Assembly: GCF_041296385.1 (NCBI RefSeq)
Contig: NW_027184084.1
Location: 1,426,001 to 1,490,000, forward strand
Length of the DNA stretch: 64,000 nucleotides
Source of the DNA: Aphelocoma coerulescens
Lineage: Eukaryota > Chordata > Aves > Passeriformes > Corvidae
Reading direction: 5' to 3'
This document shows positions 11,674-63,590 of this stretch, one piece after another. Position numbers and translations under genes: made by a program. How positions within the stretch are numbered: the stretch's first letter is position 1; every line of letters begins with the position of its first letter. The notes beneath the pieces are model-generated. The model made no database searches, was not told the origin of the DNA, and saw nothing but the letters and a program-made list of their open reading frames with translations.

Positions 11674-12312
11674 CTATGAGATGCTGTCCATGGTAAGGTC
11701 CACCCCTCGGTCACGGGCCCATCGGTATGTTGCATCTCTCCCCTGCTGACCAGAGGCATCATGGGCCCAATGAGCTAGGAATAATTCTCTCTTGTGCTGC
11801 CAGTCCAGATCCACCTGTGATACTTTCACCTTGGCAGCTCGGTCCACCTGCTCGTTGTTGCGATGTTCTTCATTAGCCCGACTCTTGGGTACGTGCGCAT
11901 CCACGTGTCGAACCTTCACGGTCAGCTTCTCTACTCGGGCAGCGATGTCCTGCCAAATCTCAGCGGCCCAGATGGCTTTCCCTCTGCGCTGCCAGTTGGC
12001 CTTTCTCCAGCAAACCAGCCATCCCCACAGAGCATTAGCTACCATCCACGAGTCGGTGTAGAGAGAGAGCCTCGGCCACTTCTCTCGTTCAGCAATATCC
12101 AAAGCCAGCTGGACGGCTTTAAGCTCTGCAACCTGACTGGATCCACCTTGTCCCTCGGTAGCTTGTGCAACTTGCCGTGTGGGGCTCCATACTGCAGCTT
12201 TCCACTTCCTGTTAGTGCCTACAATTCGGCAGGAACCATCAGTGAAGAGGGCATAACGTCTTTCAGTCTCCGGTACCTCATTATATGGTGGGGCTTCCTC
12301 AGCGTGAGTCAC
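11674..12312 (-). pseudogene. pol: ERVL#2 RNase H and integrase zinc domain
   Basis: Contains YALFTDGSCRI (first Asp), AELKAVQLALD (Glu), LYTDSWMVANALWGWL (second Asp) and VRHVDAHVPKSRANEEH, the usual RNase H order. It continues into the HH part of an integrase zinc domain (HWAHDASGQQGRDAT) and stops at a mutation in DSIS-stop. About 213 codons are open. It is part of the minus-strand ERVL#2 pol. Confidence 0.78.
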
Positions 12313-12349
12313 TTGCTCTTCCTCTTCTTCAGAAGATAATCCAAAAGTC

Positions 12350-27769: not shown

Positions 27770-28551
27770 GTTCACCCTAAAACAAGGTCCCCTTGAGGTA
27801 TGCATCGGGTCTCTCCATCCTTTTGCATCGCCCACCAGGTACAACCTGGTCCCTGAGCAAAAACAACCCCACGGATGGGTTTGTCTTTGCTCCAGGCAGA
27901 ATTAACCTAAACAGTTTTTCCAAGCATACCTCTCACGTGCACCACTGGAACCTTATCCCCATCTGCTCTTTGTAGGGGTTCGGATTGGGCAGGGCCTGCT
28001 CGGCTGGTGGAGCCTCGGGTGTTAAACAACCAGGTGGCTCTTGCTAAATGCACCTCCCAGTTTTTGAAAGTCCCCCCACCCAGTGCCTTCAAGGTGGTTT
28101 TCAACAATCCATTACACCGCTCAACCTTCCCAGGTGCTGGTGCATGGTAAGGGATGTGGTACACCCACTCAATGCCATGTTCTCTAGCCCAGGTGTTTAT
28201 AAGGCTGTTCTTGAAATGAGTCCCATTGTCAGATTCAATTCTCTCAGGGGTACCATGCCTCCAAAGCACTTGCTGTTCAAGGCCCAGGATGGTGTTCCGG
28301 GCTGTAGCGTGAGGCACAGGGTAAGTTTCCAGCCATCCTGTGGTGGCTTCTACCATTGTGAGCACATAGCGCTTGCCTTGGCGGGTTTGAAGCAGTGTGA
28401 TGTAATCAATCTGCCAGGCCTCCCCATACTTGTATTTGGACCATCGCCCACCACACCACAGGGGTTTCACCTGCTTGGCCTGCTTGATCGCAGCCCATGT
28501 CTCAGAGTCATGGATCACCTGGGAGATACTGTTCATGGTAAGATCCACCCC
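27770..28551 (-). pseudogene. pol: ERVL#3 integrase
   Basis: Open frame 28548-27907 has WQIDYITLL (first Asp), RIESDNGTHFKNS (second Asp), HAPAPGKVERCNG (Glu) and KVPVVHVRGMLGK. A stop at 27907 ends it, with the C-terminal residues (FAQGPGCTWWAMQKDGET) still readable downstream. The CETC of the zinc domain is damaged (SETWAAIKQ). An otherwise well-kept integrase. Confidence 0.8.
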
Positions 28552-29268
28552 TCAATCTCGTGCCCACTTATAGGACGCATCTCTGCCCTCTATTTTCGCA
28601 GCCTGATCTATCTGTTTGTTGTTATCATGTTCTTCGTTAGCCCGGCTCTTGGGGACGTGAGCATCTACATAACGGACCTTCACGGATAGCTTCTCTACCC
28701 GAGTGGCAATGCCTTTCCACTCCTCAGCAGCCCAGATTGATTTTCCTTTGGGCGGCCAGTTTGCCTGATTCCACCTTTCCAGACAACCCCACAGAGCATT
28801 GGCTACCATCCATGAATCAGTGTAGAGGTAGAGCTTTGGCCACTTCTCTCTTTCAGCTATGTCCAGAGCTAATTGAACGGCTTTGAGTTCAGCAAATTGG
28901 CTCGATCCACCTTCCCCTTCAGTAGCCTGTGGAACTTGTGTGGGGCTCCATACAGCGGCTTTCCATTTCCGGCTAGCGCCTAAAATTCGGCAGGAACCAT
29001 CAGTGAAGAGGGCGTATTGTCTTTCACTCTCTGGTAGCTCGTTATATGGTGGGGCTTCTTTGGCACATGTCACTTGCTCCTCTTCTTCTTCAGAAGACAA
29101 CCCAAAAGTCTCACCTTCCGGCCAGTTTGTAATTATTTCCAAGATCCCAGGGCGGCTTGGGTTTCCACTTCGCGCACGCTGCGTGATGAGGGCGATCCAT
29201 TTGCTCTGAGTAGCGTCGGTGATGCAATGCGTGGAAGGAACCTTTCCTTTGAACATCCGCCCCAGCAC
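28552..29268 (-). pseudogene. pol: ERVL#3 RNase H
   Basis: Open frame of 238 codons: YALFTDGSCRILG (first Asp), AELKAVQLALD (Glu), LYTDSWMVANALWG (second Asp) and VRYVDAHVPKSRANEEH. It ends at a stop inside the linker to the integrase zinc domain, where part of the HH motif has been deleted (AAKIEGRDASYKWARD). Confidence 0.8.
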
Positions 29269-30355
29269 CGGTAGTCAGGGTGCCAGGAGGAGTTGTGCCT
29301 CTGTGCCGATTACTTCTGAGGCAGCTTGGACTCCTTCCTAATCTGACAAGATTTCTTTCTCTGTGGGAGTGTAGTTGGCTTCAGACCCTCTGTAGCTTCG
29401 GCTCCAGAATCCCAGTGGTTGGCCCCGAGTCTCACCAGGCACCTTCTGCCAGAGGCTCCAGGACAGACCATTGTTCCCGGCTGCAGAGTAGAGCATGTTC
29501 TTCACATCTGGTCCTGTCCTGACTGGGCCCAGGGCTACCGCATGAGCAATTTCCTGCTTGATCTGGGCAAAGGCTTGCTGTTGTTCAGGGCCCCAGTGGA
29601 AATCGTTCTTCTTGCGGGTAACCAGGTAGAGAGGGCTCACGATCTGGCTGTACTCGTGTATGTGCATTCTCCTGAAACCTATGGCGCCTAGGAAAGCTTG
29701 TGTTTCCTTCTTGCTGGTCGGTGGAGACATTTCAGTGATCTTATTGACGACCTCGGTGGGAATCTGATGTCGTCCATCTTGCCACTTTACTCCCAGGAAC
29801 TGGACCTCTCGGGCAGGTCCCTTGACTTTGCTCTTCTTGATGGCGAATCCAGCTTCCAGGAGAATTTGGATGATTCTCTCTCCTTTCTCAAATACCTCCG
29901 ATGCCGTGTTTCCCCACACTATGATGTCATCAATGTACTGCAGATGTTCTGGAGCCTCACCCTCTTCCAGTGCAGCCTGGTCTGTGGAAGATGGTGGGAC
30001 TGTGCTTCCACCTCTGGGGCAGTCGGTTCCAGGTGTATTGCACACCCCTCCAGGTGAAAGCAAACTGAGGCCTGCACTCTGCTGCCAGAGGAATCGAGAA
30101 AAATGCATTAGCAATGTCAGTAGTGGCATACCATTTCGCTGCTTTGGACTCTAGCTCGTACTGTAGCTCCAACATGTCTGGCACAGCAGCACTCAATCCT
30201 GGGGTCACTTCATTCAAGGCACGATAGCCCACAGTCAATCTCCATTCCCCATCAGACTTGCGCACAGGCCAAATGGGGCTGTTGAAGGGTGAGTGGGTCT
30301 TGCTGACCACTCCTGGGCTCTCCAGCTCATGGATCATCTTGTGGATGGGAATCAC
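29269..30355 (-). pseudogene. pol: ERVL#3 reverse transcriptase
   Basis: Two frames. 30355-29957 covers IPIHKMIHELESPGVVSK, SPIWPVRKSDGEWRLTV, TTDIANAFFSIPLA and YTWNRLPQRWKHSP. 30129-29338 covers QYIDDIIVWGNT (intact YIDD), VKGPAREVQFLGVKWQDG and AFLGAIGFRRMHI, then the connection. The frame change is near 29975, between the LPQ region and YIDD, and removes a few residues. Confidence 0.82.
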
Positions 30356-33699: not shown

Positions 33700-34900
33700 C
33701 AACTCTCTCACCTACCAATATAAGAGCACTTTCCATGGCATCTAATCTAGCCATTATTTCTCTACCAATGTTTTCTTGTGTTTGTAATTCTTTTGTGATA
33801 TTAGTTAAAGCCTGCCACACAGTATGGGCAGTTTGAATGGAATGAGTTACGGCAGTGACAGCCACAGAGGCTGTGGTTAATATTATTATGGCAGAAACAA
33901 TAGCAAAGATCAACCAACCCAGAAATTTGCGAACTCATTTCTTACTTGTTTGGATTTCCTCTTGGAGTATTCGAGCCAATTGTGATAGACCATCCTGTCC
34001 TTCCCAAGCCCGAGTCAGATTTACAGGTACCCAAATCTCACATCTTCTTTTAAATGGAAGAAGGACAAAATAGTTGAGCATACCTCCATAGGTTATACAT
34101 GATTTGAAAACAAAAGAATCAGCGGATGAAAAATACAAACCATTTCTATGATCTACCAAAAAATCATTAGTTAAAGCAAAAACATATGGGTGTGAAGTAC
34201 AAGTCATTAGTAATTACTCCTCTTGCAGTGTTAAAGTAGCAATTGTATAATTCTTTTCTAATTTTACTTGGTGTATCCTATTGCCAAAAGCAGGTAACGA
34301 CATTTTCCACAATTGTTTGTGCACACAGGACTGTTTATTACCTAAATAATATTGAATTAATGATCCAGCCATTCCACCATCATGCCAGACAATACTGTGG
34401 TTTGCCTTTTGGGACGGGAGAACGGTTGCATTAGTCCCATTTTCTTTAAAGATACCATGTGGTCCCCAATCAGTTACCCTTACGTACTGTAAGAATTGTT
34501 GTTGTGTCCGTTGTCCTATACATAATGTCCATTCCAAATGCTGTATATTGGAGATGGGTGTAAAATGACATTTCGGGAAATGAGGTGGAGTGGCATCCAC
34601 AAATTTGTTGGAGGTAGACAGAATGGCTGGTAATGTAATAGCAGTCAATTTTCTTGCATTCTCTGAGTGTACATATATTAAATGCAATTGCATAGAAAAT
34701 TTAGCACAAGGTAAAGAGGCACTGTTTGATTCCATGTTAAGCATATAGGTGGTAAATCAGTAACAAAAGTAGTGTTAATACTATATGTATCTACAATATC
34801 CTGATCTAAGGGAGGAAGCCAAGTTCCTCCTACCCATTCTATTCCATTGTTGGTGAGGGCAGGCTCTGGATCCCGCCAGGTCAGAGGCTGAAACAGAGAA
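33700..34900 (-). pseudogene. env: K1 env: surface subunit and start of transmembrane subunit
   Basis: Minus-strand frames 34744-34214, 34207-33935 and 33913-33700. The surface subunit contains SKCHFTPISNIQ-like text, LEWTLCIGQRTQQQFLQYVRVTDWG and KLEKNYTIATLTLQEE. TM starts with a hydrophobic fusion-peptide-like run (FAIVSAIIILTTASVAVTAV), then a heptad helix (IGREIMARLDAMESALILVG). ERVL#3 cuts it there and the rest lies at 26283-26733. This is a beta-type (class II) Env with two stops. Confidence 0.72.
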
Positions 34901-35640
34901 GGCTGAATGATGTGGGCTTAGTAGATTCTTCCTTCCACCATTTGATGGTAGTATAGCAGAAAAACAACGACAAGATTAATTGTTGCCATCCTTGGCTGGG
35001 TTTGATGCATCTCGCCGGAAGCCAATATGGTCCTGTAGGCAAAGAAACACATCCATAACCTCTCCCCCAAGCTAACAGTGGAACTGGACCTTTCCACTGA
35101 CCGCTATGTACATCCTTGTATGTGACTTCTGGGTAAACTCCTTCTCCTTCAGCAGTCTGACCCAGGAGCCTTTTACGTGTAGTTAAGTCGTCTCTGGTGG
35201 AGCGATTCAAAAAATTTAAAACATAGGTTGCTTTGTCAAGCTGCTCTTGAGGAAGCATTCCTATTGGTTTCCCTCTCTTTTGTTTTTGTAGCATGTTTTT
35301 CAATGTATAATGTGCCCTTTTGACTATGGCTTGCCTTGTTGGGGAATGGGCCATACTTGTGAAGTGTTTGATACCCCAAGTGTGGAAGAATTCTTGTGTT
35401 TTATGAGATGTGTATGCAAGTCCATTATCTGTTTTCATCTGTTGAGGGACACCCATTGTGCTGAAGGCATGGAGCCAATGTCAGGTGGCATCTCTTGGTT
35501 CCTCACCTTTGTGTGCTGTTGCTACTATGAATCCTGAAAAGGTATCAATAGAAACATGGACATATTTAAAAGTCTCAAAGCTCGACGTGTGTTACATTTG
35601 TTTGCCAAATGTCATTAGGTTTCAACCCTTGTGGGTTTGT
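34881..35640 (-). pseudogene. pol: K1 integrase
   Basis: First-Asp region damaged near 35580 (WQTNVTH, with Asn replacing the Asp). Then, after a frame change, QQMKTDNGLAYTSH, SPTRQAIVKRAHYTLKNM (the Glu position reads Lys) and a C-terminal domain GPVPLLAWGRGYGCVSL. Two catalytic residues appear substituted, so it is inactive. It is followed by K1 env on the minus strand. Confidence 0.75.
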
Positions 35641-36440
35641 ACCTAATGTTTGTGGCAAAGAAAGAGTCTGCTGACATTGTGAACAAGTATTCACTACATC
35701 CTGTGCTTGTGGCAAAGTTAGATTGAATTGTTTTGCCAGTGCTTGGGCATTTTGATGGTAGAAATAATGAGAAAGTTTTGCCTGCCCTAACTTCTGTGGT
35801 ATAGTGACTGTCATGGCAAGGGCATCCACCCTTGCATTACCTTCCACTATAGGTCCAGGCAGAGTGGTGTGTGACCTAAGATGCAGAATGTAATATTCAT
35901 GAGACCTGTGAAGTAAAAAGTTGTACAGAGTGGTTAATAACACAAAAATATCTTTGTTGGAGACTTCCTTCAGGAATGAGTGCTCAATTCTCTCAACGAT
36001 TCCTGTAACATAACGAGAATCGCAAACAATGTCAATAGGTTCCTGTGAAAAAAGGCAAAATGCTTCTACCACAGCTGCCAGTTCGGCTAGCTGGGTAGAT
36101 CCAGGTTGAAAGGTTATCAAATGTTCCCACTGTCCCTTATAATTTTTCCACAGGGTCACAGCTTTGTGTGTCTTTCCTGATCCATCAGTGAAAATGGTCT
36201 TTGCATCAGGGATCAGGGTTTTCATTTGTAATCTTCGCTGTTGAAAGGGGAGTTCTTTGAAGGATTGTAGCAGGGCATGTCAAGGTATCATGTGAATAAA
36301 CTGTCCATTATAGTCTGCAAGAGCAATTTGAAATGACAGTGAATCCCTGAAAAGATTCTCTAATTCTGCTGCAGTATAGGGAGATGTATTACTGTCGGAT
36401 CATATCCTGTCAGGTTCTGGCATTGGAGTCGTCCCATTAA
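35641..36440 (-). pseudogene. pol: K1 RNase H and integrase zinc domain
   Basis: AKTIFTDGSGKTHK (first Asp), AELAAVVEAFCLF (Glu), IVCDSRYVTGIVERIEH (second Asp) and LHLRSHTTLPGPIVEGNARVD. Then HYFYHQNAQALAKQF with CSQCQQ, an HHCC zinc domain. The region 36230-36440 holds the degraded RT-RNase H linker with stops. Confidence 0.78.
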
Positions 36441-45120: not shown

Positions 45121-45644
45121 TGTTACAAAAAGGATAGGATATTGGATTTTAGAAGTAGTAAGGCTAAGGCTCTGCTAGGCTGTAAGGCCTCAGGTGTAGA
45201 AATAGTTCTCTGGGGAAACAGGAATAGAATGTACTGGGTGGGGAGGTTAGGAATAGTGAATTAGCTGGGCATGGTGAACCTGTTAGTGAATTAGCTGGGC
45301 ATGGTGAACCTGTCTAAAAGTAAATTGTTCTGGGTTGATATATGTTGCATGCAAGGGGGATTTCAGTGGTAGGAGCTCGTTGAGCATTATCTAAGACTAG
45401 ACAACCATAGAGAGATATGGCGTAGGGTATGATTATCAATTGTTAATCCTTGTGATGTATGTTTTACTTTGAAGATTAAATCTTGTATGTGTGCCAATGT
45501 TTGAAACTGTATAAAGAGCTGAGTGAAACGATAGGCCTTTGGGAAGCCTGATTTGGGACACTAGTCCCCAGGTCCCCGGGCCCTGAATAAAGCACCGCAT
45601 AAACTGACTCTCTGTTGGTTTGTGTTTGTGGTCGGTGGGCAACA
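45121..45644 (+). repeat. Gamma provirus 5' LTR with 30-bp tandem duplication
   Basis: 524 bp, TGTTACAAAAAGG to GGTGGGCAACA. A 30-bp unit containing TGAATTAGCTGGGCATGG occurs twice in tandem (about 45251-45313) but once in the 3' LTR. TATA box CTGTATAAAG (about 45508-45517), polyadenylation signal AATAAA at 45586-45591. Confidence 0.93.
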
Positions 45645-45650
45645 GTTTTC

Positions 45651-45668
45651 TGGCGACCGCGGCAGGAC
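45651..45668 (+). promoter_or_regulatory. Gamma provirus primer-binding site (tentative)
   Basis: TGGCGACCGCGGCAGGAC lies six bases after the LTR and starts with TGG, complementary to a tRNA CCA end. The implied tRNA 3' end (GTCGCCA) is of the type found in some arginine tRNAs, but the match could not be verified. The six-base gap is somewhat long. Confidence 0.5.
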
Positions 45669-46050
45669 TCCGGGGGTCGTAGGGGCGGTTCGCGGGGTGA
45701 TCTGCTCCGTGCCGGCACCAGGTGATTTCTGGGGAGACATCAGCCCGTGCCCGACCCCGCGTCCGACGGACAACTGTGAGGTAAGCCCACAAGGTGCTTT
45801 ATTCCTTTTAAACCGGTGGTGGTAGCCTGCCCGGTAAGACGAGTCTCTACTCGCAGGGTTGGGGCATTGGTTTGGATTATAAGGCCTAGGCGCTGGCCGT
45901 CAGACAGAGCGAAAGCTTTGCAGAGCCAGCCCTTGCTTCTCGCGGCGACGAGATAAGCAAGGAGGGAATTGGATATTGTGGTAATTAGTATTGGTATTAG
46001 TCTGTGTGTTACTGTGTGTGTGTGTTATTGTGTGGTTGCATACCTCTGGA

Positions 46051-46674
46051 ATGATGCCGTTGCGGGTGTTTCGGGCTTTGTCAAGTTCAGATAAGGATAT
46101 TCCGGAGGAATCTCCCCTTGGGTGTTTGCTAAGTCATTGGAAGGAGGGTAAATTGGGACGGGAGCTGCGGAAAAGGGAATTGATTGATTATTGTAATAAG
46201 GTATGGCCTGAATATGAAACTGGGGGGATGCAGTGGCCGTGGAATGGCACTATTAATTCTGAAATTATAACCTCCATGATGCGGTACCTACGGGAAAATG
46301 AGAAGTGGGATGAGATACCCTATTTGGATTTGTTCTATCAGCTAATAGGAAAAAAGGATTGGCAGAGGAAATGTGGAATGATGGTGTTAGAAACGGAACC
46401 AGAAGAATGCGTGGGTTGTAAAGAGCGAAGGGTACGGTTCTCTGAGCCTGAGGAGGATGTGTCTTTGTTGGTATCACCATCCGACCCAATCAACCTCCCC
46501 CTCCCGGACTCAGATTCTTCGGAAGAGGAATCTGACTCCGAGGAAGGAGAGAGGGAACGATCCCGAACTCCCGAACCCAGGGAGAGAGGGAGGGAACAAT
46601 CCCGAACTCCACTCTCCCAGCGTACTCGCAGAGGGCGTCTGGACAGGGAAAAAGCGCTTCTCGAGCACATCTAA
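46051..46674 (+). pseudogene. gag: Gamma gag: matrix and p12-like region
   Basis: First ATG of the frame is 46051 (MMPLRVFRALSSSD). Matrix features LLSHWKEGKLGRELRKREL and the region IDYCNKVWPEYETGG, WPWNGTINSE resemble gammaretroviral matrix. Neither candidate Met is followed by Gly, so the usual myristoylation signal is absent. An acidic stretch (SDSSEEESDSEEGERE) and a basic RSRTPEPRERGRE tail follow. No PPxY or PTAP is seen. The frame ends at TAA 46672-46674, overlapping the next ATG; a small indel upstream most likely separates it from capsid. Confidence 0.78.
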
Positions 46675-47759
46675 TGGCCCCATTGCGAGAAGCAGTTGGA
46701 CCAACAGGGGATCGGGTCAGAGTGAAAGTTCCGTTTTCCCCCAATGATTTAATAATTTGGAAGCAATCTGCTGGAGCTTATAGAGAAAATCCTGAAAAGG
46801 TGGCTCGGGTGGTGAAAATGGTAATAAAGACACAGAATCCGGACTGGAATGACCTACAGGTGTTGCTAGACTCGATAATGGATTCTACGGAAAAGGAGAT
46901 GGTATTTAAAGCTATGTCTAATCGGGCAAGGGACATGATTCAGTTGCAAGCACCAGCACTACAAGGAATAGGGAATGTGAATGAAATAGTACCAAGGGAA
47001 GATCCAGAATGGAACCCTAATTTGGCAGAAGAGTATCATAGGTTGCAGGTTTATCAGGAGCTGTTGGTGGAAGGAATTCAGAGGGGAATCCCAAAGACTT
47101 TAAATTGGTCTAAGTTGTATGCGGTAAGACAGGATAAGGCAGAGTCACCATCTGCGTTCTTGGAGAGGCTGAAAGAAATAGCACGGAGGTATACAGACTT
47201 AGACGTGGAATCGGAGGCAGGAAAACTACAAATGGCCTTGATATTTATGGGACAGTCACAGGAGGATATTAGGAGGAAGCTACAAAAGCTAGAAGGGAAT
47301 GACACTCAGGACTTGGAGAAAATGCTTGAAGTAGCGTGGAAAGTGTATAATAATAGAGAGAAAGAGGCAGTGAAGAAGCAACAAGCAAGCATGTTGGCAG
47401 TGTTACAACAGGCAAGTCAGATGAATGTGAGAGGCCGGGGGAGGGGACGAGGCAGAGGAAACGGGGGCATGGGAAGAGGTGGTTTCGGAGGTTTTGTGAA
47501 TCAGAATGTAGGGAATCAGATGATGGGTAGGGGTAGAGGTAAATTGGGGCCCAATCAGTGCGCCCGATGCTTCGCCGAAGGTCATTGGAAGAATGAGTGC
47601 CCCCTCAATTTGGGGATGGGGACACCGATGAGTAACTTTCCAGGAAGGAATCCCATAAATCAGGGAATGAACGCGAATGATGGGTTAAACCCTTTCGCGC
47701 CAGGACCACAAGGTGTTGCTCAAGCCTTTATGATGGGGAACTATCAAAATCAGAGCTGA
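46674..47759 (+). CDS. gag: Gamma gag: capsid and nucleocapsid
   Basis: Starts MAPLREAVG, which is also the usual start of gammaretroviral capsid (PLRE). Core features: VPFSPNDLIIWKQSAGAYR, NPEKVARVVKM, and the homology region AVRQDKAESPSAFLERLKE. Nucleocapsid has an RGRGRGRG/GGFGG arginine-glycine stretch and one zinc knuckle CARCFAEGHWKNEC (about 47557-47600). The ATG overlaps the matrix stop as TAATG. It ends at TGA 47757-47759, in the same frame as pol. Confidence 0.88.
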   Translation: MAPLREAVGPTGDRVRVKVPFSPNDLIIWKQSAGAYRENPEKVARVVKMVIKTQNPDWNDLQVLLDSIMDSTEKEMVFKAMSNRARDMIQLQAPALQGIGNVNEIVPREDPEWNPNLAEEYHRLQVYQELLVEGIQRGIPKTLNWSKLYAVRQDKAESPSAFLERLKEIARRYTDLDVESEAGKLQMALIFMGQSQEDIRRKLQKLEGNDTQDLEKMLEVAWKVYNNREKEAVKKQQASMLAVLQQASQMNVRGRGRGRGRGNGGMGRGGFGGFVNQNVGNQMMGRGRGKLGPNQCARCFAEGHWKNECPLNLGMGTPMSNFPGRNPINQGMNANDGLNPFAPGPQGVAQAFMMGNYQNQS

Positions 47760-47763
47760 CTAG
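47757..47763 (+). promoter_or_regulatory. Gag-pol stop-codon readthrough site UGA-CUAG
   Basis: The gag stop TGA is followed by CTAG, and the frame beyond (47760 on) is open directly into protease. UGA followed by CUA(G) is an established leaky-stop context in several viral and animal genes. Gammaretroviruses make Gag-Pol by readthrough, usually of UAG. A readthrough role is inferred from frame and context. Confidence 0.8.
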
Positions 47764-50700
47764 ATAAAGATCTAAAAGTGGTCCTGGAAGTTGATGGGGG
47801 GCCCAGGGAATTTAGGGTAGATACAGGAGCCACTTTCTCTGCAATCAATGAACAAATAGGACCGTTAAGTGATTCAGTTGTGAAAGTAGTAGGGGTGTCG
47901 GGGGAGGTGGTGGAGAGGTCATTCTTGCGGCCACTGGAAATCAAATTTGGAAACAAAGAATTGGATCACCAGTTTTTATATATGCCAAGCAGCCCGGAAT
48001 GCTTGTTGGGGCGAGATTTATTATCGGCACTGGATGCAAAAATCATATTCGAGAAAGGGCGTGCTAAACTAGAAATCCCGGAGGGGAATCTGGCAAAACT
48101 TTTTGTGATTAAAGAGACAAAGACAGAGGAGATACCCCAGGAAATAGAGCAGGCAGTAGTCCCATGGGTATGGGAAACAGGGACCCCGGGCAGATCCAGG
48201 GTAGCCGTTCCTGTGAAAATTGAATTAAAGGAAGGGGCACACCCGGTAAGAGTTCGACAGTACCCTATTAGTTTGGAAGCCAGGAAAGGAATTGCCCCAA
48301 TGATCACACAATTTATAGCATTAGGGATTTTACAAGAATGCGAATCAGAATTTAATACTCCAATCTTTCCGGTAAGGAAACCAAATGGGAAATACAGGTT
48401 GGTGCAGGACCTGAGAGCAGTAAATGCAATTGCCAAAGATATACACCCGGTGGTGGCCAATCCATATACATTGTTAACATCGATTTCTGAGAATTTTCAG
48501 TGGTTCACAGTAATTGATCTAAAAGACGCCTTCTTCTGCATCCCACTGGCCCCCGAGAGTCAATACATTTTCGCCTTTGAATGGGAAAGCCCAGACACTC
48601 GCCGCAAGCGACAGTTAACATGGACCAGGTTGCCACAAGGATTTAAGTGTTCACCCACCATTTTTGGAAACCAGCTAGCAAAGGAGTTAGAGGAATGGAA
48701 AACTACCAAGGTAAAAGAGTCTCCTTTTTCTTATGTTGTTTTACAATATGTGGATGACATACTCCTGGGAACAGAGGAGCGGGGACTGTGCTTAAAGTTA
48801 ACAATTGAACTATTAAACATGTTGGGTCAGGCAGGATACCAAGTATCCAAGGAAAAAGCGCAGCTGGTGCGACAGAAGGTAATTTATCTGGGATGTGAAA
48901 TATCACAAGGAGTCAGGAGAATAGGGGTGAATCGCATACAAGCCATCTGTGCAATCCCTGTACCACGAAATAATCAGGAATTAAGATCTTTCCTAGGGAT
49001 GGTCGGCTGGTGTCGCCTGTGGATTCCGAATTTCGGACTCATGGCCAAACCACTGTACGAAACAATCAAGGAACCCGAATTCAAGTGGGGTAAGACACAG
49101 CACAAGGCTTTCCAGGAATTAAAGCAAGCACTCAAAGAGGCCCCCGCCCTGGGTCTGCCAGACCTGACAAAAGACTTTCAATTGTATGTGCATGAAAGGC
49201 AGAGATTAGCTTTAGGAGTACTCACACAGCGATTGGGGTCATGGAAGAGGCCCGTGGGGTACTTCTCGAAACAGCTGGACATGGTGAGCGGAGGGTGGCC
49301 AGGGTGCTTGCGAGCAGTGGCTGCTACGGTAATCCTAATTCAGGAGGCACGGAAACTGACACTGGGAAAACACATCACGGTATATGTACCTCACATGGTC
49401 ATAGCCGTCTTGGAACAAAAAGGGGGGCATTGGCTCTCCTCCAGCAGAATGATGCAGTATCAGGCTCAGTTGCGGGAACAAGATGATGTTGAATTAAAAA
49501 TAACCAACCATCTCAATCCAGCAGAATTCCTCAGGTCCACCCAAGAGGAAGGAGAACTGGAGCATGACTGCGTGGAGGTGATCGAACAAGTGTATGCCAG
49601 CCGTGAGGATCTGAAAGATGTCCCGATGGCAGATCCCGATGTGGAGCTGTTCACGGACGGATCCAGTTTTATGGAGCATGGAACCAGGTATGCAGGGTAT
49701 GCTGTGGTGACACTCCAAGAAATAGTGGAAGCTAAAGCACTGCCTCCAGAAACTTCAGCGCAAAAAGCAGAAGTATGGGCGTTGGTAAGGGCATTGGTCC
49801 TTAGTAGAGACAGGAAAGTGAACATTTGGACTGATTCAAAGTATGCATTTGGTGTGGTTCACATCCATGGGGCTTTGTGGAAAGAAAGAGGACTTTTGAC
49901 CTCTCAAGGCTCACAGATCAAACATAAGGAAGTAATAATTCAGTTGCTGGAAGCTGTACACTTACCTAAAGCAGTAGCGATCATGCATGTCCGAGGTCAT
50001 CAAGCAGACTCCGGGAAAGAATTTCAGGGGAATCGGATGGCAGATGAAGCTGCGAAAAGGGCAGCCAGATTGGTCTGGACTCAAATGGCTCTGATACCGA
50101 CAAGAGAAAATCCCGCTGCACCTTATTTAGAAGAGAAACCGTGCTACTCTCCGGAGGATGAACGGTTGGCACAAATCACTGGAGCAAGAAGGAATGTTGT
50201 AGGATGGTATGTAACACCGGTCGGACAAGTTATACTGCCAGTAGGATTGATGAAAGTAGTCATGGAAACTGAACATAACAAACTCCACTGTGGTGCAGAA
50301 GCATTGGTAGAATATCTAAAGAAAATAGTACTCTCTAATTCGATGATAACAATGGCCAAAAGAATAAATGCCACCTGCCCGATTTGCATTAAAAATAACC
50401 CGTTGGTTAGAAGACAGGTCCAAATGGGGAAAATACGTGTAGGGCCACAACCAGGGGATTATTGGCAAATAGATTTTTCCGAGTTACCAAAATCTCAGGC
50501 ATACAAGTACTTACTAGTTTATGTGTGCACCTTTTCGGGATGGCCCGAAGCTTTCCCTTGCAGGACGAATCAGGCCAAGGAGGTAGTGAAAACCCTTCTC
50601 AAGGAAATTATTCCAAGGTTTGGGGTCCCTTTAGGAATATCATCAGATAGAGGACCACATTTTACTGCAGGGATCGTGCAGGAAGTTTCTACTATTCTGG

Positions 50701-51281
50701 GAATTCAGTGGCACTTACACACCCCCTGGAGACCTCAATCTAGTGGTCAGGTGGAACAAATGAATCAAACTCTGAAAAATCAAATTAAAAAGATTTGTCA
50801 AGAAGCTAAAATACAGTGGCCCCAAGCATTGCCTCTAGCCCTTCTGAGGATTAGGATTAAACCACGAGAAAGGATAGGGGTAAGTCCGTATGAAATTTTG
50901 TACGGCAAACCATATCATGCTGTAACCTATCAAGGGGACCCACATGTAATTGGGGATCAGATGATTGTAAATTATGTTCTGTCTTTAAATAAGACCCTTG
51001 CAGCACTGAGATCCACGCTGGAGTGGAATCGACCGTTACCTCTGGACACTCCTGCTCACGATATTCACCCAGGAGATCAAGTTTACGTGAAGAACTGGTC
51101 GGTGGAGCCTCTGAAGGAAACATGGGACGGCCCCCATCAAGTGATAATGACAACTTACACCGCCGTCAAGGTCGACGGGATCAACAGCTGGATCCATTAC
51201 ACACGGGTCAAAAAGGTCCCCTCCCGATGGTCGGTGGAACCCCTATCTCCCACCAGAATGGTGTTCAAAGCCAAAAATTAA
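47760..51281 (+). CDS. pol: Gamma pol: protease, RT, RNase H, integrase (intact)
   Basis: One uninterrupted frame of about 1,170 codons. Protease: FRVDTGATFSAI (Asp codon 47820) and LLGRDLLSAL. RT: KYRLVQDLRAVN, FTVIDLKDAFFCIPL, LPQGFKCSPTIF, and YVDDILLG (48747-48758). RNase H: ELFTDGSSFM, AEVWALVRAL, IWTDSKYAFGVV and HVRGHQADSG. Integrase: HNKLHCGAE with CPICIKN (zinc), YWQIDFSEL, GISSDRGPHFT and QSSGQVEQMN (DDE), then a C-terminal domain with GDQVYVKNW and WDGPHQVIMTT. Gammaretroviral in every domain. It ends TAATG into env. Confidence 0.95.
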   Translation, partial: LDKDLKVVLEVDGGPREFRVDTGATFSAINEQIGPLSDSVVKVVGVSGEVVERSFLRPLEIKFGNKELDHQFLYMPSSPECLLGRDLLSALDAKIIFEKGRAKLEIPEGNLAKLFVIKETKTEEIPQEIEQAVVPWVWETGTPGRSRVAVPVKIELKEGAHPVRVRQYPISLEARKGIAPMITQFIALGILQECESEFNTPIFPVRKPNGKYRLVQDLRAVNAIAKDIHPVVANPYTLLTSISENFQWFTVIDLKDAFFCIPLAPESQYIFAFEWESPDTRRKRQLTWTRLPQGFKCSPTIFGNQLAKELEEWKTTKVKESPFSYVVLQYVDDILLGTEERGLCLKLTIELLNMLGQAGYQVSKEKAQLVRQKVIYLGCEISQGVRRIGVNRIQAICAIPVPRNNQELRSFLGMVGWCRLWIPNFGLMAKPLYETIKEPEFKWGKTQHKAFQELKQALKEAPALGLPDLTKDFQLYVHERQRLALGVLTQRLGSWKRPVGYFSKQLDMVSGGWPGCLRAVAATVILIQEARKLTLGKHITVYVPHMVIAVLEQKGGHWLSSSRMMQYQAQLREQDDVELKITNHLNPAEFLRSTQEEGELEHDCVEVIEQVYASREDLKDVPMADPDVELFTDGSSFMEHGTRYAGYAVVTLQEIVEAKALPPETSAQKAEVWALVRALVLSRDRKVNIWTDSKYAFGVVHIHGALWKERGLLTSQGSQIKHKEVIIQLLEAVHLPKAVAIMHVRGHQADSGKEFQGNRMADEAAKRAARLVWTQMALIPTRENPAAPYLEEKPCYSPEDERLAQITGARRNVVGWYVTPVGQVILPVGLMKVVMETEHNKLHCGAEALVEYLKKIVLSNSMITMAKRINATCPICIKNNPLVRRQVQMGKIRVGPQPGDYWQIDFSELPKSQAYKYLLVYVCTFSGWPEAFPCRTNQAKEVVKTLLKEIIPRFGVPLGISSDRGPHFTAGIVQEVSTILGIQWHLHTPWRPQSSGQVEQMNQTLKNQIKKICQEAKIQWPQALPLALLRIRIKPRERIGVSPYEILYGKPYHAVTYQGDPHVIGDQMIVNYVLSLNKTLAALRSTLEWNRPLPLDTPAHDIHPGDQVYVKNWSVEPLKETWDGPHQVIMTTYTAVKVDGINSWIHYTRVKKVPSRWSVEPLSPTRMVFKAKN

Positions 51282-52867
51282 TGCTGTTGTTGTTACTCTT
51301 GAGTGAAATAATAATTGTTGAAACCTTTGTTAAAATCACAATACCTGAATCAAGGGTGTGGGTACCGGAGAATTCAAATGTAAATCTTACATGTTTGTTT
51401 GTCGATGATCAGGGAGCTGGATGGGACAGAGTCAGGGCACAATGGAAATGGATCACCAAGGATCAAATTCCCGATAAAGGAGTAGAAACGGTCTGGGATG
51501 AGAAGCAGCAAAAAGGTAGGAGTACCCTGCAGATATCCAATATAACAAAAGCCAGAACAGGAAAATACGCTTGTGTGGTTTGGATAAAAGGGACTTATGA
51601 TTATGGATTCGTAAATCTTGACATTTTAAATATCTCCCAAACAGAATCAGAAAATAAGGTCCAGGTGAATCTCCCAAATGGGAAAGTAGATATGTGGGAC
51701 GGACCTCCCCTCAGAATAAAATGTACTCATAGGTTTAAGACAGGGTGTCAGAAACAGATTAGAATGAAATGGTGGAAATGGAACACGACACAGGAAATGT
51801 GGAATCCACAGGTACAAGGGACAAGTTGGTGGACGCTGGGAAATGAGAGCAGAGGATGGTTGAATATAACGAACTCAGAGATTGGTAGATCGGAGGGTAA
51901 ATACCTTTGTGTTATCGTTTGTGGTAATAGTGGAGGTTATGGGGTCAGGAAGGTAGAAGTGGTATTACAACAGGAGCAAGGAATCAAGCCTGAACAGGAA
52001 ATATATAACGCAAAGGAAGGGCAGGATTTGGTTTTAAGATGTAGGATACCAACCGAAAGCTATACTGAGTATGAATGGTGGTTTGGAGGACAAAGCTTGG
52101 TGGCTCAAGGGAAATATCAAATTAAAAGAAAACCCCAAGAAATAGTGTTAGTAATTAAAGAGGTCCTGGAACAGCAAGATAATGGACAATACTGGTGTTG
52201 GGTTGCTCGAGATGATTGGTGGGCAACCGGGATGATTAGTGTTTATGTTGAAAGAACAAGGGTGACTCGGCAGGTACTAGAAGATGAAATCCAAACCAAA
52301 CCAGAGAATCTGATTGTGGGTTTAATTAGGGATTTTGGGCAAACACAAAATGTATCAGCAATCACTGCATGTCTGCCTTTGCCCCATGCGGCAGGAGACC
52401 CTATACCATGGGGAATTATACCAGCTCCAGACATGCCTGCATCTAATCGAACAGTTACCTTAAGTTGTACCCAGGAGATTAGGAGCCGAACTAAATTGGT
52501 TAATCGGACAAATGTGATAAGGAGGAAAACCCCGAGGACTCGAGCAGATTGTTATAAGCTTCCGAATGCTGTATTTACCAGAATCGGAAGATTCCAGGGA
52601 GTAGGATGGTGTGAATACGATGAGAGGCAAACACGAGAAGTCCCGGCGACTGAACAATATTTTGAAATAATATGCCAGAATGTTACAAACACAACTACCA
52701 TGGAACAATGGCAGACAATCTGGGGACCTAGTTTGTTGGAAACTTATAGTTATATAGGAACAGTTCAATGGTGTATTCATTGGAAGGGACGGAAAAATCA
52801 AACTTACTCAAAGACCTATCAAGGACAGGATAGTTGGAGGAAAGATGCACCTAGGATGACCGATTAG
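51281..52867 (+). CDS. env: Gamma env surface subunit with three Ig-like domains
   Basis: ATG 51281 overlaps the pol stop (TAATG) and opens with a hydrophobic leader (MLLLLLLSEIIIVETF). Three tandem immunoglobulin-like domains follow, each with two Cys, a central Trp and a YxC motif preceded by G: Cys38-Cys98 (RTGKYAC), Cys148-Cys210 (SEGKYLC) and Cys254-Cys306 (DNGQYWC). They span about 51332-52256. A C-terminal surface domain follows (ITACLPLPHAAGDPIPWG), with several N-glycosylation sites and Cys residues but no CxxC. The frame meets TAG at 52865-52867. Confidence 0.85.
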   Translation: MLLLLLLSEIIIVETFVKITIPESRVWVPENSNVNLTCLFVDDQGAGWDRVRAQWKWITKDQIPDKGVETVWDEKQQKGRSTLQISNITKARTGKYACVVWIKGTYDYGFVNLDILNISQTESENKVQVNLPNGKVDMWDGPPLRIKCTHRFKTGCQKQIRMKWWKWNTTQEMWNPQVQGTSWWTLGNESRGWLNITNSEIGRSEGKYLCVIVCGNSGGYGVRKVEVVLQQEQGIKPEQEIYNAKEGQDLVLRCRIPTESYTEYEWWFGGQSLVAQGKYQIKRKPQEIVLVIKEVLEQQDNGQYWCWVARDDWWATGMISVYVERTRVTRQVLEDEIQTKPENLIVGLIRDFGQTQNVSAITACLPLPHAAGDPIPWGIIPAPDMPASNRTVTLSCTQEIRSRTKLVNRTNVIRRKTPRTRADCYKLPNAVFTRIGRFQGVGWCEYDERQTREVPATEQYFEIICQNVTNTTTMEQWQTIWGPSLLETYSYIGTVQWCIHWKGRKNQTYSKTYQGQDSWRKDAPRMTD

Positions 52868-53857
52868 AATTGCACTGAGGTCTTCACTTGTGACAGCCCA
52901 AGTGAGTCTGTGAGTCTACTGCCGGTAAAGGTACTTTTGAGATTTGGCTGTGAATGTAGGGGATATAACCACACGATAACAGACAAAAATACAGAAGGAG
53001 AGTTAAACTGTAAAACTACATCAATCCGAGCTCCAGGAAATTTAGTTTGGGTAATGGGTCATGGACATTGGACCACTCATATGCCGGTAGATGGTCCAAC
53101 TACACAAATTACTTTAGGAGTTCCAACTCTTTGTCCTTTCTGGAAATCGACAAAATTGACGGCCTCAGAAATACAAATAAGACATAAGCGAGACATCAGT
53201 CAGGAAATTGGGGACATAGGGTTAGAAGAAGGGGAAGATTGGCATGAACCTTCTTCAGGAATTAAATTTGGGTGGGTATTAGAATCTCTCTTTGCACAAA
53301 TATCATCATATCGAAACAGGGAAATGTTGTACAAATTGTTGGGACAAACAGAAAGGTTAGCGTCTGTGACCAAGAAGGGATTCAAGGACTTAAATCTGCA
53401 GTTACAAGCTACGTCTAGAATGACAATTCAAAATCGGATGGCTCTAGATATGATATTGTTGAAAGAGCATGGCGTATGTGGATATCTGCATGGTAGAGAC
53501 GACCATTGCTGCATTCACATCCCGAATGTTACACAAGAAGTAGAAAAGGATATAAGTCAATTAGAACGGATTGAAGGAAAGGTGAATGATATTCAGAAAG
53601 AGGCAGAACACAATTGGGTTGGAGAACTGTTCAGCTCCCTGGGAATTCGGATGTCCGGATGGATATCCTCAATTGTACAATATGGAATCATGATTGTTAT
53701 AATCATTTTAGTTGCCTTAATAGTATATAAGTGTCTTTTAGGAATGATTGTCAAGGAAGGTCAACATACTCGGCGAATAATGAAGGCGATAATGCGAAGA
53801 GAAGTCCTGGCAGAACCAGCCGTTCCACCTCCTGCTTATCGCGAAACAGCGACATGA
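52868..53857 (+). pseudogene. env: Gamma env C-terminal surface end and transmembrane subunit
   Basis: Same frame as the surface part, directly after the TAG. Features: furin-type RHKR (53180-53191), no obvious hydrophobic fusion peptide right after cleavage, a heptad region (LLGQTERLASVTKKGFKDL), MTIQNRMALDMILLKEHG, then Cys-9 residues-CysCys (53477-53512) where CX6CC is usual. The anchor is IVQYGIMIVIIILVALIVY. The cytoplasmic tail of about 35 residues ends VPPPAYRETAT, with a PPPAY motif. The part after the stop cannot be made without readthrough in this copy. Confidence 0.82.
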
Positions 53858-53902
53858 ATTGTTGAGCATCCTTGCGAACCCAGAAGAAGCTCGAAGGATG
53901 CT

Positions 53903-53916
53903 CAAAAGGGGGGACT
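53903..53916 (+). promoter_or_regulatory. Gamma provirus polypurine tract
   Basis: CAAAAGGGGGGACT lies immediately before the 3' LTR start TGTTACAAAAAGG at 53917. Confidence 0.85.
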
Positions 53917-54410
53917 TGTTACAAAAAGGATAGGATATTGGATTTTAGAAGTAGTAAGGCTAAGGCTCTGCTAGGCTGTAAGGCCTCAGGTGTAGAAATA
54001 GTTCTCTGGGGAAACAGGAATAGAATGTACTGGGTGGGGAGGTTAGGAATAGTGAATTAGCTGGGCATGGTGAACCTGTCTAAAAGTAAATTGTTCTGGG
54101 TTGATATATGTTGCATGCAAGGGGGATTTCAGTGGTAGGAGCTCGTTGAGCATTATCTAAGACTAGACAACCATAGAGAGATATGGCGTAGGGTATGATT
54201 ATCAATTGTTAATCCTTGTGATGTATGTTTTACTTTGAAGATTAAATCTTGTATGTGTGCCAATGTTTGAAACTGTATAAAGAGCTGAGTGAAACGATAG
54301 GCCTTTGGGAAGCCTGATTTGGGACACTAGTCCCCAGGTCCCCGGGCCCTGAATAAAGCACCGCATAAACTGACTCTCTGTTGGTTTGTGTTTGTGGTCG
54401 GTGGGCAACA
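53917..54410 (+). repeat. Gamma provirus 3' LTR
   Basis: 494 bp, identical by eye to the 5' LTR apart from lacking one 30-bp repeat. Followed by the ATAG duplication and the rest of the interrupted alpharetrovirus-like env. Confidence 0.93.
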
Positions 54411-59550: not shown

Positions 59551-60939
59551 TTATATCTCAAAGGTGGCCTTCATTTCGATGTCGCTTATAGTTTTCATAT
59601 TCCCAAAATCTTTTGTTAGGCAATCATATTTATAAGGCTTTCCTGTTTCATCTTCCCCAACATCTCTCCCATTCTGATGAACAACTAAGATATTAGATAC
59701 AGTCCTACTTGTTATTTTTTGCACACACTGAAGTATACAAGGTACTGCTACTAAAACTATAATTATTACTACTAGAATAATCAAACCTATTTTACAGAGT
59801 TCCCTTAGCCAAGGTGCAAAGCTCCAACCATCAAACAAACTGTCTAACCAAGACAGGTCATCTGTTGTGATTTGGTTAGCTAGATCCCTTAGGTTTTGTA
59901 GCTGTTTGTGAATGGAAACAGAATGATCAGATAAGTTCATACAGCATAATCCTTCAAAATCTTCACAGCCATGCCCATGTGCTAATAAAAGATAATCAAG
60001 GGCAGCTCTATTTTGTAAAGTGGCATGTCTGACTGCCTCTTCATCGGTTAACAAATCACTGATCATAGTAGAGGTGGCATTTACCTCCTTGCTGAGCCAA
60101 CATCCCAACTTGTTTAGCTGTTTTAATGCAATTGAGGAACTTAACTGAGGTAGAAAAATGCTTGCAACAATTGATTTTTCAGAGTTCCAAGGGTGGAAGT
60201 CACTATCACAGTCGCTATCGTACTGATGTCCCCAGGAAGATCTGATCTTTCTGCTTTTCTTTTTGATTACCTCTTTGACACTTGGAGCAATAATTGTAAG
60301 TTGTCCCAGGGCACAAGGGCCACCATCTATTTTTGAAGGTATACCTTGCCAGGCCCTGTCTCCACAGATGAGCCAAATTCCTCTGGGGAATCGAATAGGA
60401 AGTTTGTTAAAGCGATCTGCATGAGGTTCGTCATATATAAGAAGCTTAGCTTGATTACACCAAGAAGTTACATTGCTATAAGCTGGGTGATATGGGGTAA
60501 CGTTTAAATGAGGACCGTTTTCTCCTTGAAAGTGAAAGAAATAGCAGGTATCCATAGTTAGTGAACCTAGGATTTTTAGCTCTTGAAGGTCAGATTTATC
60601 AATTTTAGAATTATCAATATAAGTTTGGTGTCGATGGCTGGGAGTTGGAGATACATGATGATCGTCATATGGCCAATACTTATCAAGAGTAATATTATCA
60701 AAACCTTCTGGAAGAGGTATTCCAACTAAACAGGTTGAAAAGGGGTTGTCAGGGCTTGTGTCAGATAGACAGATGGTATCGGAGCCTGCAGATTTGGCTA
60801 AAGCAACCCAGACATTTGTCTTTGGTTGATTCACAGGTAAAGCTTCACTACAAAAACTAAAACAAAAGAATAAAAGCAACATGCACGCGCGCAAATGAGA
60901 AAACTCCATTCTTTTCTTGAGCTGTTTTTGGCAGATCAC
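59551..60939 (-). CDS. env: Alpharetrovirus-type Env, uninterrupted 462 codons
   Basis: Retroviral envelope glycoprotein for receptor binding and membrane fusion. Start ATG 60939, or 60909 (MEFSHLRAC), followed by a signal peptide (CMLLLFFCFSFCSEA). The surface part of about 200 residues has N-glycosylation sites and ends in a basic cleavage region (KKKSRKIR, residues 226-233). The transmembrane part has an internal hydrophobic loop between Cys244 and Cys280 (SIVASIFLPQLSSS), an immunosuppressive-type helix (LQNRAALDYLLLAHGHG), CX6CC (325-333), an anchor (383-405) and a long tail of about 57 residues. The loop and CX6CC layout is that of avian leukosis-type Env, but the surface subunit is short. 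Open despite a truncated provirus. Confidence 0.88.
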   Translation of the reverse strand: MICQKQLKKRMEFSHLRACMLLLFFCFSFCSEALPVNQPKTNVWVALAKSAGSDTICLSDTSPDNPFSTCLVGIPLPEGFDNITLDKYWPYDDHHVSPTPSHRHQTYIDNSKIDKSDLQELKILGSLTMDTCYFFHFQGENGPHLNVTPYHPAYSNVTSWCNQAKLLIYDEPHADRFNKLPIRFPRGIWLICGDRAWQGIPSKIDGGPCALGQLTIIAPSVKEVIKKKSRKIRSSWGHQYDSDCDSDFHPWNSEKSIVASIFLPQLSSSIALKQLNKLGCWLSKEVNATSTMISDLLTDEEAVRHATLQNRAALDYLLLAHGHGCEDFEGLCCMNLSDHSVSIHKQLQNLRDLANQITTDDLSWLDSLFDGWSFAPWLRELCKIGLIILVVIIIVLVAVPCILQCVQKITSRTVSNILVVHQNGRDVGEDETGKPYKYDCLTKDFGNMKTISDIEMKATFEI

Positions 60940-62199: not shown

Positions 62200-63590
62200 C
62201 ACAACAATCAGATCTCCCTGTGGTACACAACGTGTTGTTCCGTCTTTCTGCATTACCCATCACGTGCAACCAGGTCCCTGAGCAAAGACAACCCCACGGG
62301 TGGGTTTGTCTGTACTCGAGGCAGAATTTATCCACACAGGCTTTCCTAACAGACCTCTGACATGCACTACAGGGACCTTATCTCCATCTGTTGTATGCAG
62401 GGATTCAGATTGGGCTGGACCAGCTCTATTGGTGGAACCTCGGGTGTTAACTAACCAGGTGGCCTTTGCTAGATGCTGTTCCCAATTTTTGAAAGTTCCC
62501 CCACCCAGTGCCTTCAGAGTGGTTTTCAACAATCCATTGCACCGTTCCACTTTGCCTGCAGCTGGTGCATGGTAAGGGATGTGGTACACCCACTCAATGC
62601 CATGTTCTCTAGCCCAGGTGTTAATAAGGCTGTTCTTAAAATGAGTCCCATTGTCAGATTCAATTCTCTCAGGGGTACCATGCCTCCAAAGGACTTGCTT
62701 TTCGAGGCCCAGGATGGTGTTCCGGGCAGTAGCATGAGGCACAGGGTAGGTCTCCAGCCATCCAGTGGTGGCTTCTACCATTGTGAGCACATGGCGCTTG
62801 CCTTGGCGGGTTTGAGGCAGTGTGATGCAATCAATTTGCCAGGCCTCCCCATACTTGTATTTGGACCATCGCCCACCATACCACAGGGGCTTCACCCACT
62901 TGGCCTGCTTGATCGCAGCGCATGTCTCACAATCATGGATGACCTGGGAGATACTGTCCATGGTCAGATCCACCCCTCGGTCTCGTGCCCACTTATAGGT
63001 GGCATCTCTGCCCTGATGGCCTGAGGCATCATGGGCCCATCGAGCTAGGAACAACTCTCCCTTGTGTTTCCAGTCCAAGTCTACCTGTGACACCTCTATC
63101 TTTGCAGCCTGATCTACCTGCCTGTTGTTTTGGTGTTCTTCATTAGCCCTACTCTTGGGGACATGGGCATCTACATGGCGGACTTTCACAACCAGCTTTC
63201 TTACTCGGGCAGCAATGTTTTTCCACTCTTCAGCAGCCCAGATTGGTTTTCCCCTACGCTGCCAATTAGCTTTTCCCCACTTTTCTAACCATCCCCACAG
63301 AGCATTGGCTACCATCCATGAATCAGTGTAGAGGTGAAGCTTTGGCCACTTCTCCCTTTCAGCAATGTCCAGGGCTAGTTGAACAGCTTTGAGTTCAGCG
63401 AGTTGGCTTGATCCACCTTCTCCTTCAGTAGCTTCGGCAACCCGTCGTGTGGGACTCCATACGGCTGCTTTCCAGTTTTGTTTCATCCCTCTGATGCGAC
63501 AAGAACCGTCGGTGAAAAGAGCGTAGCGTGTGTCTTCTGATGGCAGTTGGTTGTACAGTGGAGCTTCTTCAGCACGTGTCACTTGTTCTT
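62200..63590 (-). CDS. pol: ERVL#4 RNase H and integrase (440 codons open)
   Basis: RNase H: YALFTDGSCRIRG, AELKAVQLALD, LYTDSWMVANALWGWL and VRHVDAHVPKSRANEEH. Integrase: zinc domain HDASGHQGRDATYKWA with CETCAAIKQ, and core WQIDCITLP (Asp), RIESDNGTHFKNS (Asp) and HAPAAGKVERCNG (Glu). C-terminal KVPVVHVRGLLGK and FAQGPGCT, ending at a stop at 62260 with short residual similarity beyond. It is the best-preserved ERVL integrase in the window, with all catalytic residues present. Confidence 0.85.

What the first reader, a model, noticed from the sequence alone, without database searches (positions are those of the whole stretch)
51281..52256. Retroviral Env with three tandem immunoglobulin-like domains
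Seen directly: the surface subunit of the gamma provirus opens with three consecutive blocks, each with the Ig signature of Cys, Trp about 12-17 residues later, a hydrophobic strand, then G-x-Y-x-C (YAC, YLC, YWC). Known: gammaretroviral receptor-binding domains can have an Ig-like fold, but I know of no retroviral Env with three sequence-recognisable tandem Ig domains. Inference: host Ig-superfamily exons may have been captured, perhaps for receptor binding or immune mimicry. This is my leading candidate for an undescribed system.
Basis: partly seen in the sequence, partly recalled or inferred. Interest (0 to 1): 0.92.

Follow-up and report, generated by a model that had tools for sequence, protein, structure and literature searches.

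The report
Bird retrovirus envelope with PD-L-like module
The envelope gene of a young retrovirus in a bird genome begins with three immunoglobulin-like domains, the first resembling the immune-checkpoint ligands PD-L1 and PD-L2, and the same three-domain block exists as a stand-alone gene in bird poxviruses, so it looks like an immune-modulating module shared between very different bird viruses.

Summary
In detail: residues 16-322 of env form three Ig domains. Pfam recognises Ig1 and Ig3; Ig2 alone has no Pfam hit but is a beta sandwich in the AlphaFold2 model. It is not a one-off: relatives in many birds carry three, two, one or no Ig domains in front of one conserved SU core. Three Ig1 profiles (this lineage, a deep kakapo-type lineage, avipoxvirus homologs) each give PD-L1, PD-L2 or B7-H3 as the best PDB matches that rest on one domain. 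The block is homologous to avipoxvirus proteins of 332-345 aa (P0044, 2e-76) that end near the RxxR position and lack core and TM. An RxxR site separates block and core in 25 of 30 relatives (2.66 expected). The core holds a hypervariable cassette that swaps between lineages. I read this as a gamma-like Env with a detachable, B7-derived accessory module, more likely immune mimicry than the sole receptor-binding domain, shared with avipoxviruses (retrovirus-to-pox favoured, not proven: AU p=0.116). Function is inferred; this env copy has one in-frame stop. My library searches returned no description.

The parts
45121..45644 (+). 5' LTR; 4-bp target duplication ATAG
   Evidence: identical to the 3' LTR apart from a 30-nt length difference
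46674..47759 (+). gag CA-NC ORF
   Evidence: Gag_p30 1.1e-33
47778..51281 (+). pro-pol ORF, gammaretrovirus-like
   Evidence: RVP, RVT_1, RNase_H, rve, MLVIN_C 3.8e-15
51122..51280 (+). probable upstream part of the Env leader (ATG 51122) overlapping pol in another frame
   Evidence: MGR start in 11 of 20 rows of A1; that it is used is inference
51281..51325 (+). hydrophobic signal segment
   Evidence: sequence; helix 2-9 in the model
51326..51631 (+). Ig1, B7/PD-L-like V domain (Cys38, Cys98)
   Evidence: Ig_3 1.6e-8; PD-L2 9.6e-13 with the Ig1 profile
51644..51973 (+). Ig2, divergent V-like domain with an extra Cys pair (148, 156, 210, 214)
   Evidence: AlphaFold2 strands; hhalign to Ig1; no Pfam hit alone
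51974..52246 (+). Ig3, I-set-like domain (Cys254, Cys306)
   Evidence: I-set 1.8e-8; model
52259..52270 (+). RVTR: RxxR site between Ig block and core
   Evidence: 25 of 30 relatives have RxxR in this stretch, 2.66 expected; cleavage not tested
52304..52864 (+). SU core (ENLIVGLIRDFG.. onward)
   Evidence: core motif invariant or nearly so across A1
52421..52708 (+). hypervariable cassette inside the core, probable receptor determinant
   Evidence: role inferred
52865..52867 (+). in-frame stop that interrupts env in this copy
   Evidence: uninterrupted relatives exist (P0002, P0003, P0028)
52868..53854 (+). rest of SU and TM piece, searched apart
   Evidence: TLV_coat 4.9e-4, below cut-off
53180..53191 (+). 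RHKR SU/TM cleavage-type site
53429..53512 (+). ISD-like stretch followed by CX9CC
53917..54410 (+). 3' LTR

Best explanation
This is the Env of a young gamma-like avian ERV from an Env lineage found in many birds. Its SU has two units: an N-terminal block of Ig domains whose first domain derives from a B7/PD-L-type V domain, and a core with its own variable cassette that joins TM for entry. A furin-type RxxR site lies between them, so the Ig block can probably be released or stay loosely attached. The block is an accessory immune-modulating ligand or decoy displayed on virions and infected cells or shed, most plausibly towards PD-1/B7-type receptors; the core cassette binds the entry receptor. 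Avipoxviruses carry the same block as a separate protein with a signal-like segment. Shown by tools: Ig fold, B7 similarity, avipox homology, RxxR excess, cassette swapping, varying Ig number among records. Inferred: cleavage, receptor assignment, immune function, transfer direction retrovirus to pox.
For: B7 origin: the Ig1 profile hits PD-L2 9.6e-13, CD276 2e-12 (225-aa chain) and PD-L1 8.5e-10; 50 of the 60 chains listed (of 2237 hits) are B7 family, mostly PD-L1 constructs. The pox-only profile gives PD-L1 8.2e-9, PD-L2 1.2e-8; the deep-lineage profile, which shares one row with the first, PD-L1 2.4e-10. The Tyr that PMC5360572 describes as conserved in all known PD-L1/PD-L2 and contacting PD-1 (passage) aligns with an Ig1 Tyr invariant in the 11 rows of A2 and 6 rows of A8. 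Pox: seven proteins of 332-357 aa (six named, one unnamed), E down to 2e-76, no core or TM, ending near the RxxR position without it. Separable: RxxR 25 of 30 against 2.66 expected; Rx[KR]R 9 of 30 against 0.75. Accessory: Ig number changes 12 times on the core tree; P0036 and P0040 show signal, about 20 aa, RMKR, core. Cassette: P0007/P0015 are 95% identical downstream but 25% in the cassette; the cassette of three-Ig P0002 is nearest to P0039 (51%), whose upstream stretch matches Ig-less P0036.
Against: No binding or cleavage data. The window's site RVTR is only the minimal RxxR; 5 of 30 lack RxxR. Several records with one or no Ig domain are NCBI gene models (P0010 isoform X3, P0011 isoform X1, P0015, P0033, P0036, P0040) in which predicted introns could hide Ig domains; P0007 and P0019 (short unnamed contigs) are the better examples. 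The direction of change in Ig number is not determined. B7 proteins have a C1-type second domain, which Ig2 is not. P0031 Ig1 lacks the PD-L-like G-strand motif and was left out of A2. The structure comparison does not single out B7. The AU test does not reject pox lying outside the three-Ig ERVs (p=0.116). No avian PD-L sequence was compared.
Confidence: 0.5

Rival explanations
1. The Ig block is the receptor-binding domain: it replaces the classical gammaretroviral RBD at the N terminus of SU, and the RxxR site acts as a hinge or priming cleavage.
For: It occupies the RBD position; the proline-rich hinge of gamma Envs tolerates large insertions (PMC9967133 passage); three-Ig Envs that run uninterrupted to TM exist (P0002, P0003, P0028; P0004 lacks the start of Ig1).
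Against: Relatives with one or no Ig domain keep core and TM (some are spliced gene models); the variable swapping segment is in the core; the pox homologs have the block without core or TM.
Confidence: 0.28
2. The module arose or was assembled in avipoxviruses, and the retrovirus picked it up from a poxvirus.
For: Poxviruses often carry host immune genes (general knowledge); the AU test does not reject pox outside the three-Ig ERVs (p=0.116).
Against: Best trees nest one pox clade (100/99) among ERVs as sister of P0003 (94/96; 91/91); an Ig1-like domain and RxxR occur in a deep ERV lineage, kakapo P0033.
Confidence: 0.2
3. The Ig block is a shield or adhesion module (glycan or antibody shielding, homotypic contact) without a specific immune receptor.
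For: 6 of the 12 N-glycosylation sequons of the SU piece lie in the Ig block; Ig3 is I-set-like as in adhesion proteins.
Against: B7-type similarity of Ig1 in three lineages and retention as a separate pox gene.
Confidence: 0.15
4. Chance or annotation artefact: no real Ig domains.
For: Ig2 alone has no Pfam hit.
Against: Pfam, homologs, profile comparison and model agree.
Confidence: 0.01

Closest known systems
Gamma-type retroviral Env (review PMC9967133, passages read)
   Same: Signal, SU, basic SU/TM site, TM with ISD-like stretch and CXnCC, membrane anchor; gamma-like pol beside it
   Different: No CXXC found in 33 SU cores, CX9CC instead of CX6CC in 26 of 27 TM sequences; Ig block plus RxxR in front of the core
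Avipoxvirus Ig-like domain proteins (Shearwaterpox SWPV1-183 and SWPV2-155, Crowpox CRPV-108, Mudlarkpox, Cheloniid poxvirus 1, Fowlpox)
   Same: Same three Ig domains, 34-43% identity to the window (A7)
   Different: Stand-alone protein, no Env core or TM; named only as Ig-like domain proteins in the passages of two genome papers that I saw
PD-L1, PD-L2, B7-H3 V domains
   Same: Best single-domain PDB matches of three Ig1 profiles
   Different: Host membrane proteins with V plus C1-type domains; Ig2 and Ig3 do not match that plan
CrocERV31 with captured nectin3 (PMC4299795, passages read)
   Same: ERV carrying a three-Ig protein of host origin
   Different: There a recognisable host mRNA (~76% identical protein) replaces env; here the block is fused in front of an Env core and is divergent
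TgERV-F and other avian ERVs with gamma env (PMC10536682 passages; originals not held)
   Same: Recombinant avian ERVs with gamma-type env
   Different: Described as mammalian-like env; no Ig block mentioned in the passages I saw; relation to the present core not tested

Membership tests
Immunoglobulin superfamily | Ig beta-sandwich with Cys-Cys and core Trp | tested here: met
B7/PD-L family | V domain closest to B7 V domains | tested here: met
   (PDB chains only; no avian B7 sequences)
B7/PD-L family | C1-set domain after the V domain | tested here: not met
   Ig2 has no Pfam hit; only weak PDB matches, among them a PD-L2 V domain (0.052; 0.27), with unrelated chains as good or better
B7/PD-L family | Binding of PD-1 or another B7 receptor | not testable with these tools
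   needs protein
Gamma-type Env | CXXC motif in SU | tested here: not met
   0 of 33 cores (first 300 aa or as much as the record holds); alpharetroviral Envs lack it too (PMC9967133)
Gamma-type Env | ISD followed by CX6CC in TM | tested here: not met
   ISD-like stretch present; of 27 that my pattern found, 26 have CX9CC and one has Tyr for the first Cys. The review says n is typically 6
Gamma-type Env | Basic SU/TM cleavage site | tested here: met
   RHKR 53180-53191
Gamma-type Env | Pfam TLV_coat | tested here: inconclusive
   window TM piece 19.4 bits, below cut-off 22.5; relatives P0033 30.2 and P0036 31.4 above it
Gamma-type Env | Labile SU-TM disulfide | not testable with these tools
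   needs protein
Avipoxvirus three-Ig protein family | Homology over all three Ig domains | tested here: met
   Ig1-Ig2 profile; alignment over all three

The most novel reading that the evidence does not exclude
A retroviral envelope that carries a furin-releasable mimic of an immune-checkpoint ligand (PD-L-like), making one viral gene serve both entry and T-cell inhibition, and whose mimic was handed to avian poxviruses and kept there as a stand-alone immunomodulator.
Probability: 0.3. Interest if true: 0.94.

Novelty: new variant of a known kind. Interest (0 to 1): 0.84.

Why it matters
Retroviral immune suppression has been attributed to a short TM segment for which, a review says, no unifying mechanism is known (PMC9967133 passage). 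Here is an Env lineage with a separate, recognisable checkpoint-ligand-like module, which makes the question testable with purified protein. It would also give named bird poxvirus genes an origin and a candidate function, and document gene exchange between retroviruses and DNA viruses. It adds an Env plan (Ig block, basic site, variable core, CX9CC TM) that departs from the gamma-type scheme.

Full report
What is there. The window holds a full-length provirus, 45121-54410, with LTRs identical apart from a 30-nt length difference and a 4-bp target duplication ATAG, hence young. Gag has Gag_p30 (1.1e-33) and a zinc-knuckle-like stretch (below cut-off); pol has RVT_1, RNase H, rve and the gammaretroviral MLVIN_C domain (3.8e-15). 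Env opens at 51281, or more likely at 51122 with a leader overlapping pol, as in 11 of 20 rows of A1. One in-frame stop at 52865-52867 interrupts this copy; the pieces were searched apart. The nearest public protein is from Aphelocoma coerulescens (Corvidae; P0001, 98% over 93%), so a corvid host is inferred, not shown.

The family. Of 27 homologs of the SU piece, the 18 with a named source are all birds, passerines plus the mousebird Colius; 9 are unnamed. A second search from the core of P0007 gave 36 proteins, including kakapo, duck and cuckoo. They share the core ENLxxGLIxDFG...ITACLP...PIPWGII and differ in front of it, by my reading: three Ig (window, P0001-P0005, P0008, P0028; the records P0004, P0005 and P0008 start inside Ig1), two (P0012, P0013, P0016, P0017, P0031; P0024 has Ig1 and Ig3), one (P0006, P0007, P0010, P0011, P0014, P0015, P0018, P0019, P0033), Ig1 remnants (P0021, P0022) or none (P0036, P0040). 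On a 29-row core tree Ig number changes 12 times (least possible 3; shuffled mean 15.6, as low in 2 of 200); such counts cannot tell gain from loss. P0003 (three Ig) and P0010 (one Ig) are sisters at 100/96, but P0010 is a gene-model isoform, and several other one- or no-Ig records are gene models too, so introns predicted by annotation could feign a loss. P0007 and P0019, from short unnamed contigs, are less open to this. P0002, P0003 and P0028 run uninterrupted from signal to TM with three Ig domains.

Origin of Ig1. Three profiles were run against all PDB chains. The passerine-type profile (A2, 11 rows) gives PD-L2 51 bits (9.6e-13), CD276 2e-12, PD-L1 8.5e-10; of 2237 hits 60 are listed, 50 of them B7 family (mostly constructs of PD-L1), the other ten multi-Ig proteins. 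The avipox profile (A8, 6 rows) gives PD-L1 8.2e-9 and PD-L2 1.2e-8, behind one multi-domain titin chain (2e-9) none of whose stretches passes alone. The deep-lineage profile (A10: kakapo and two unnamed; one row, P0024, is also in A2) gives CD276 6.9e-17 over two domains and PD-L1 2.4e-10. A paper passage (PMC5360572) says that the G-strand Tyr (Y123 in PD-L1, Y112 in PD-L2) is conserved in all known PD-L sequences and faces PD-1, with W110 and Y114 of PD-L2 in the same cluster. In the alignment the window has Tyr, Tyr and Phe at these three PD-L2 positions. The Tyr is invariant in A2 and A8; P0031, left out of A2, lacks the motif. This is suggestive, not a binding result. The C1 domain of B7 proteins is absent.

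The pox link. A profile of Ig1-Ig2 (A6) found 15 proteins, among them Shearwaterpox SWPV1-183 (2e-76), Crowpox CRPV-108, Mudlarkpox, Cheloniid poxvirus 1, SWPV2-155 and Fowlpox, plus the similar unnamed P0048. They are 332-357 aa: signal-like segment, three Ig domains, end within a few residues of the RxxR position, without it. The contigs of the six named ones are 288-351 kb, poxvirus genome size. In a 20-row Ig tree the seven form one clade (100/99), sister to P0003 of a manakin (94/96), inside ERV diversity at the midpoint root; rooted with P0024 and P0055 the nesting stays (91/91, 90/93), but the AU test does not reject pox branching outside (p=0.116, with a long-branch warning). In two avipox genome papers these or sister genes are called Ig-like domain proteins and the string retrovir occurs 0 times in the main text.

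How it probably works. Between block and core 25 of 30 proteins have RxxR in a 28-residue stretch, against 2.66 expected from other 28-residue windows of the same proteins; for Rx[KR]R it is 9 of 30 against 0.75. Rows are related, so these are not independent trials; the window's own site is the minimal form. The core holds a cassette (window 52421-52708) that swaps: P0007 and P0015 are 95% identical downstream but 25% in the cassette, and over 171 pairs cassette and downstream identity correlate only weakly (Spearman 0.23). The cassette of three-Ig P0002 is nearest to P0039 (51%; its upstream stretch matches Ig-less P0036, but it is a fused gene model) and P0027 (49%; its record starts at the core, Ig status unknown), although downstream P0002 is 70% identical to P0003 and only 34% and 46% to these two. 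Host-range determinants of retroviral SU behave like this (recalled), so I place receptor binding there and read the Ig block as an accessory immunomodulator. Cleavage, receptor and function are inferences.

Comparison with known systems. It works like a gamma-type Env for entry, but two hallmark motifs tested here are not met: no CXXC in 33 cores and CX9CC rather than CX6CC in 26 of 27 (hallmarks from PMC9967133 passages). CrocERV31 captured nectin3 in place of env (PMC4299795 passages); here the block is fused to the Env. Literature: ten searches (44 was on PD-1 contacts), of which I saw listings, plus passages of seven papers; none described an Ig-bearing avian Env or its link to avipox genes. 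The library lacks most subscription papers (e.g. Henzy 2014, not held), so a description in print cannot be excluded.

Verdict. Real, present in many birds and, as far as I could search, undescribed. The IgSF and pox homologies are strong; the B7/PD-L origin is likely; the immune function is a testable inference.

Noticed in passing
P0056 (Aphelocoma coerulescens): An annotated endomucin-like isoform begins with this Env's leader and half of Ig1 and continues into endomucin (Pfam Endomucin 2.1e-48): possible ERV exon spliced into a host gene, or a gene-model artefact.
   Followed up: partly
window 47757-47777: Gag ends in a TGA with pol continuing in the same frame, as expected for gammaretrovirus-type stop readthrough.
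   Followed up: no
window 45991-46674: The matrix-like ORF (Gag_MA 3.3e-4, below cut-off) lies in another frame than the CA-NC ORF at 46674, overlapping at TAATG, so gag is split in this copy.
   Followed up: no
window 59551-60939, minus strand: Fragment of an alpharetrovirus-like env: Avian_gp85 4.9e-13, TLV_coat 2.4e-12.
   Followed up: partly
window 11674-13599, 18039-20861, 27907-30129, 34881-36225 and 62260-63582: Several further ERV pol fragments (RVT_1 matches at 12514-13599 and 18039-19496; the rest judged by eye): the window is an ERV-rich region.
   Followed up: no
TM of the family, window 53477-53512: CX9CC instead of CX6CC in 26 of 27 TM sequences, including kakapo, duck and cuckoo.
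   Followed up: partly
P0034 (Anas platyrhynchos): The same Env core follows a retroviral RT with thumb domain in one record, suggesting that this env also sits on another ERV backbone; could be a fused gene model.
   Followed up: no
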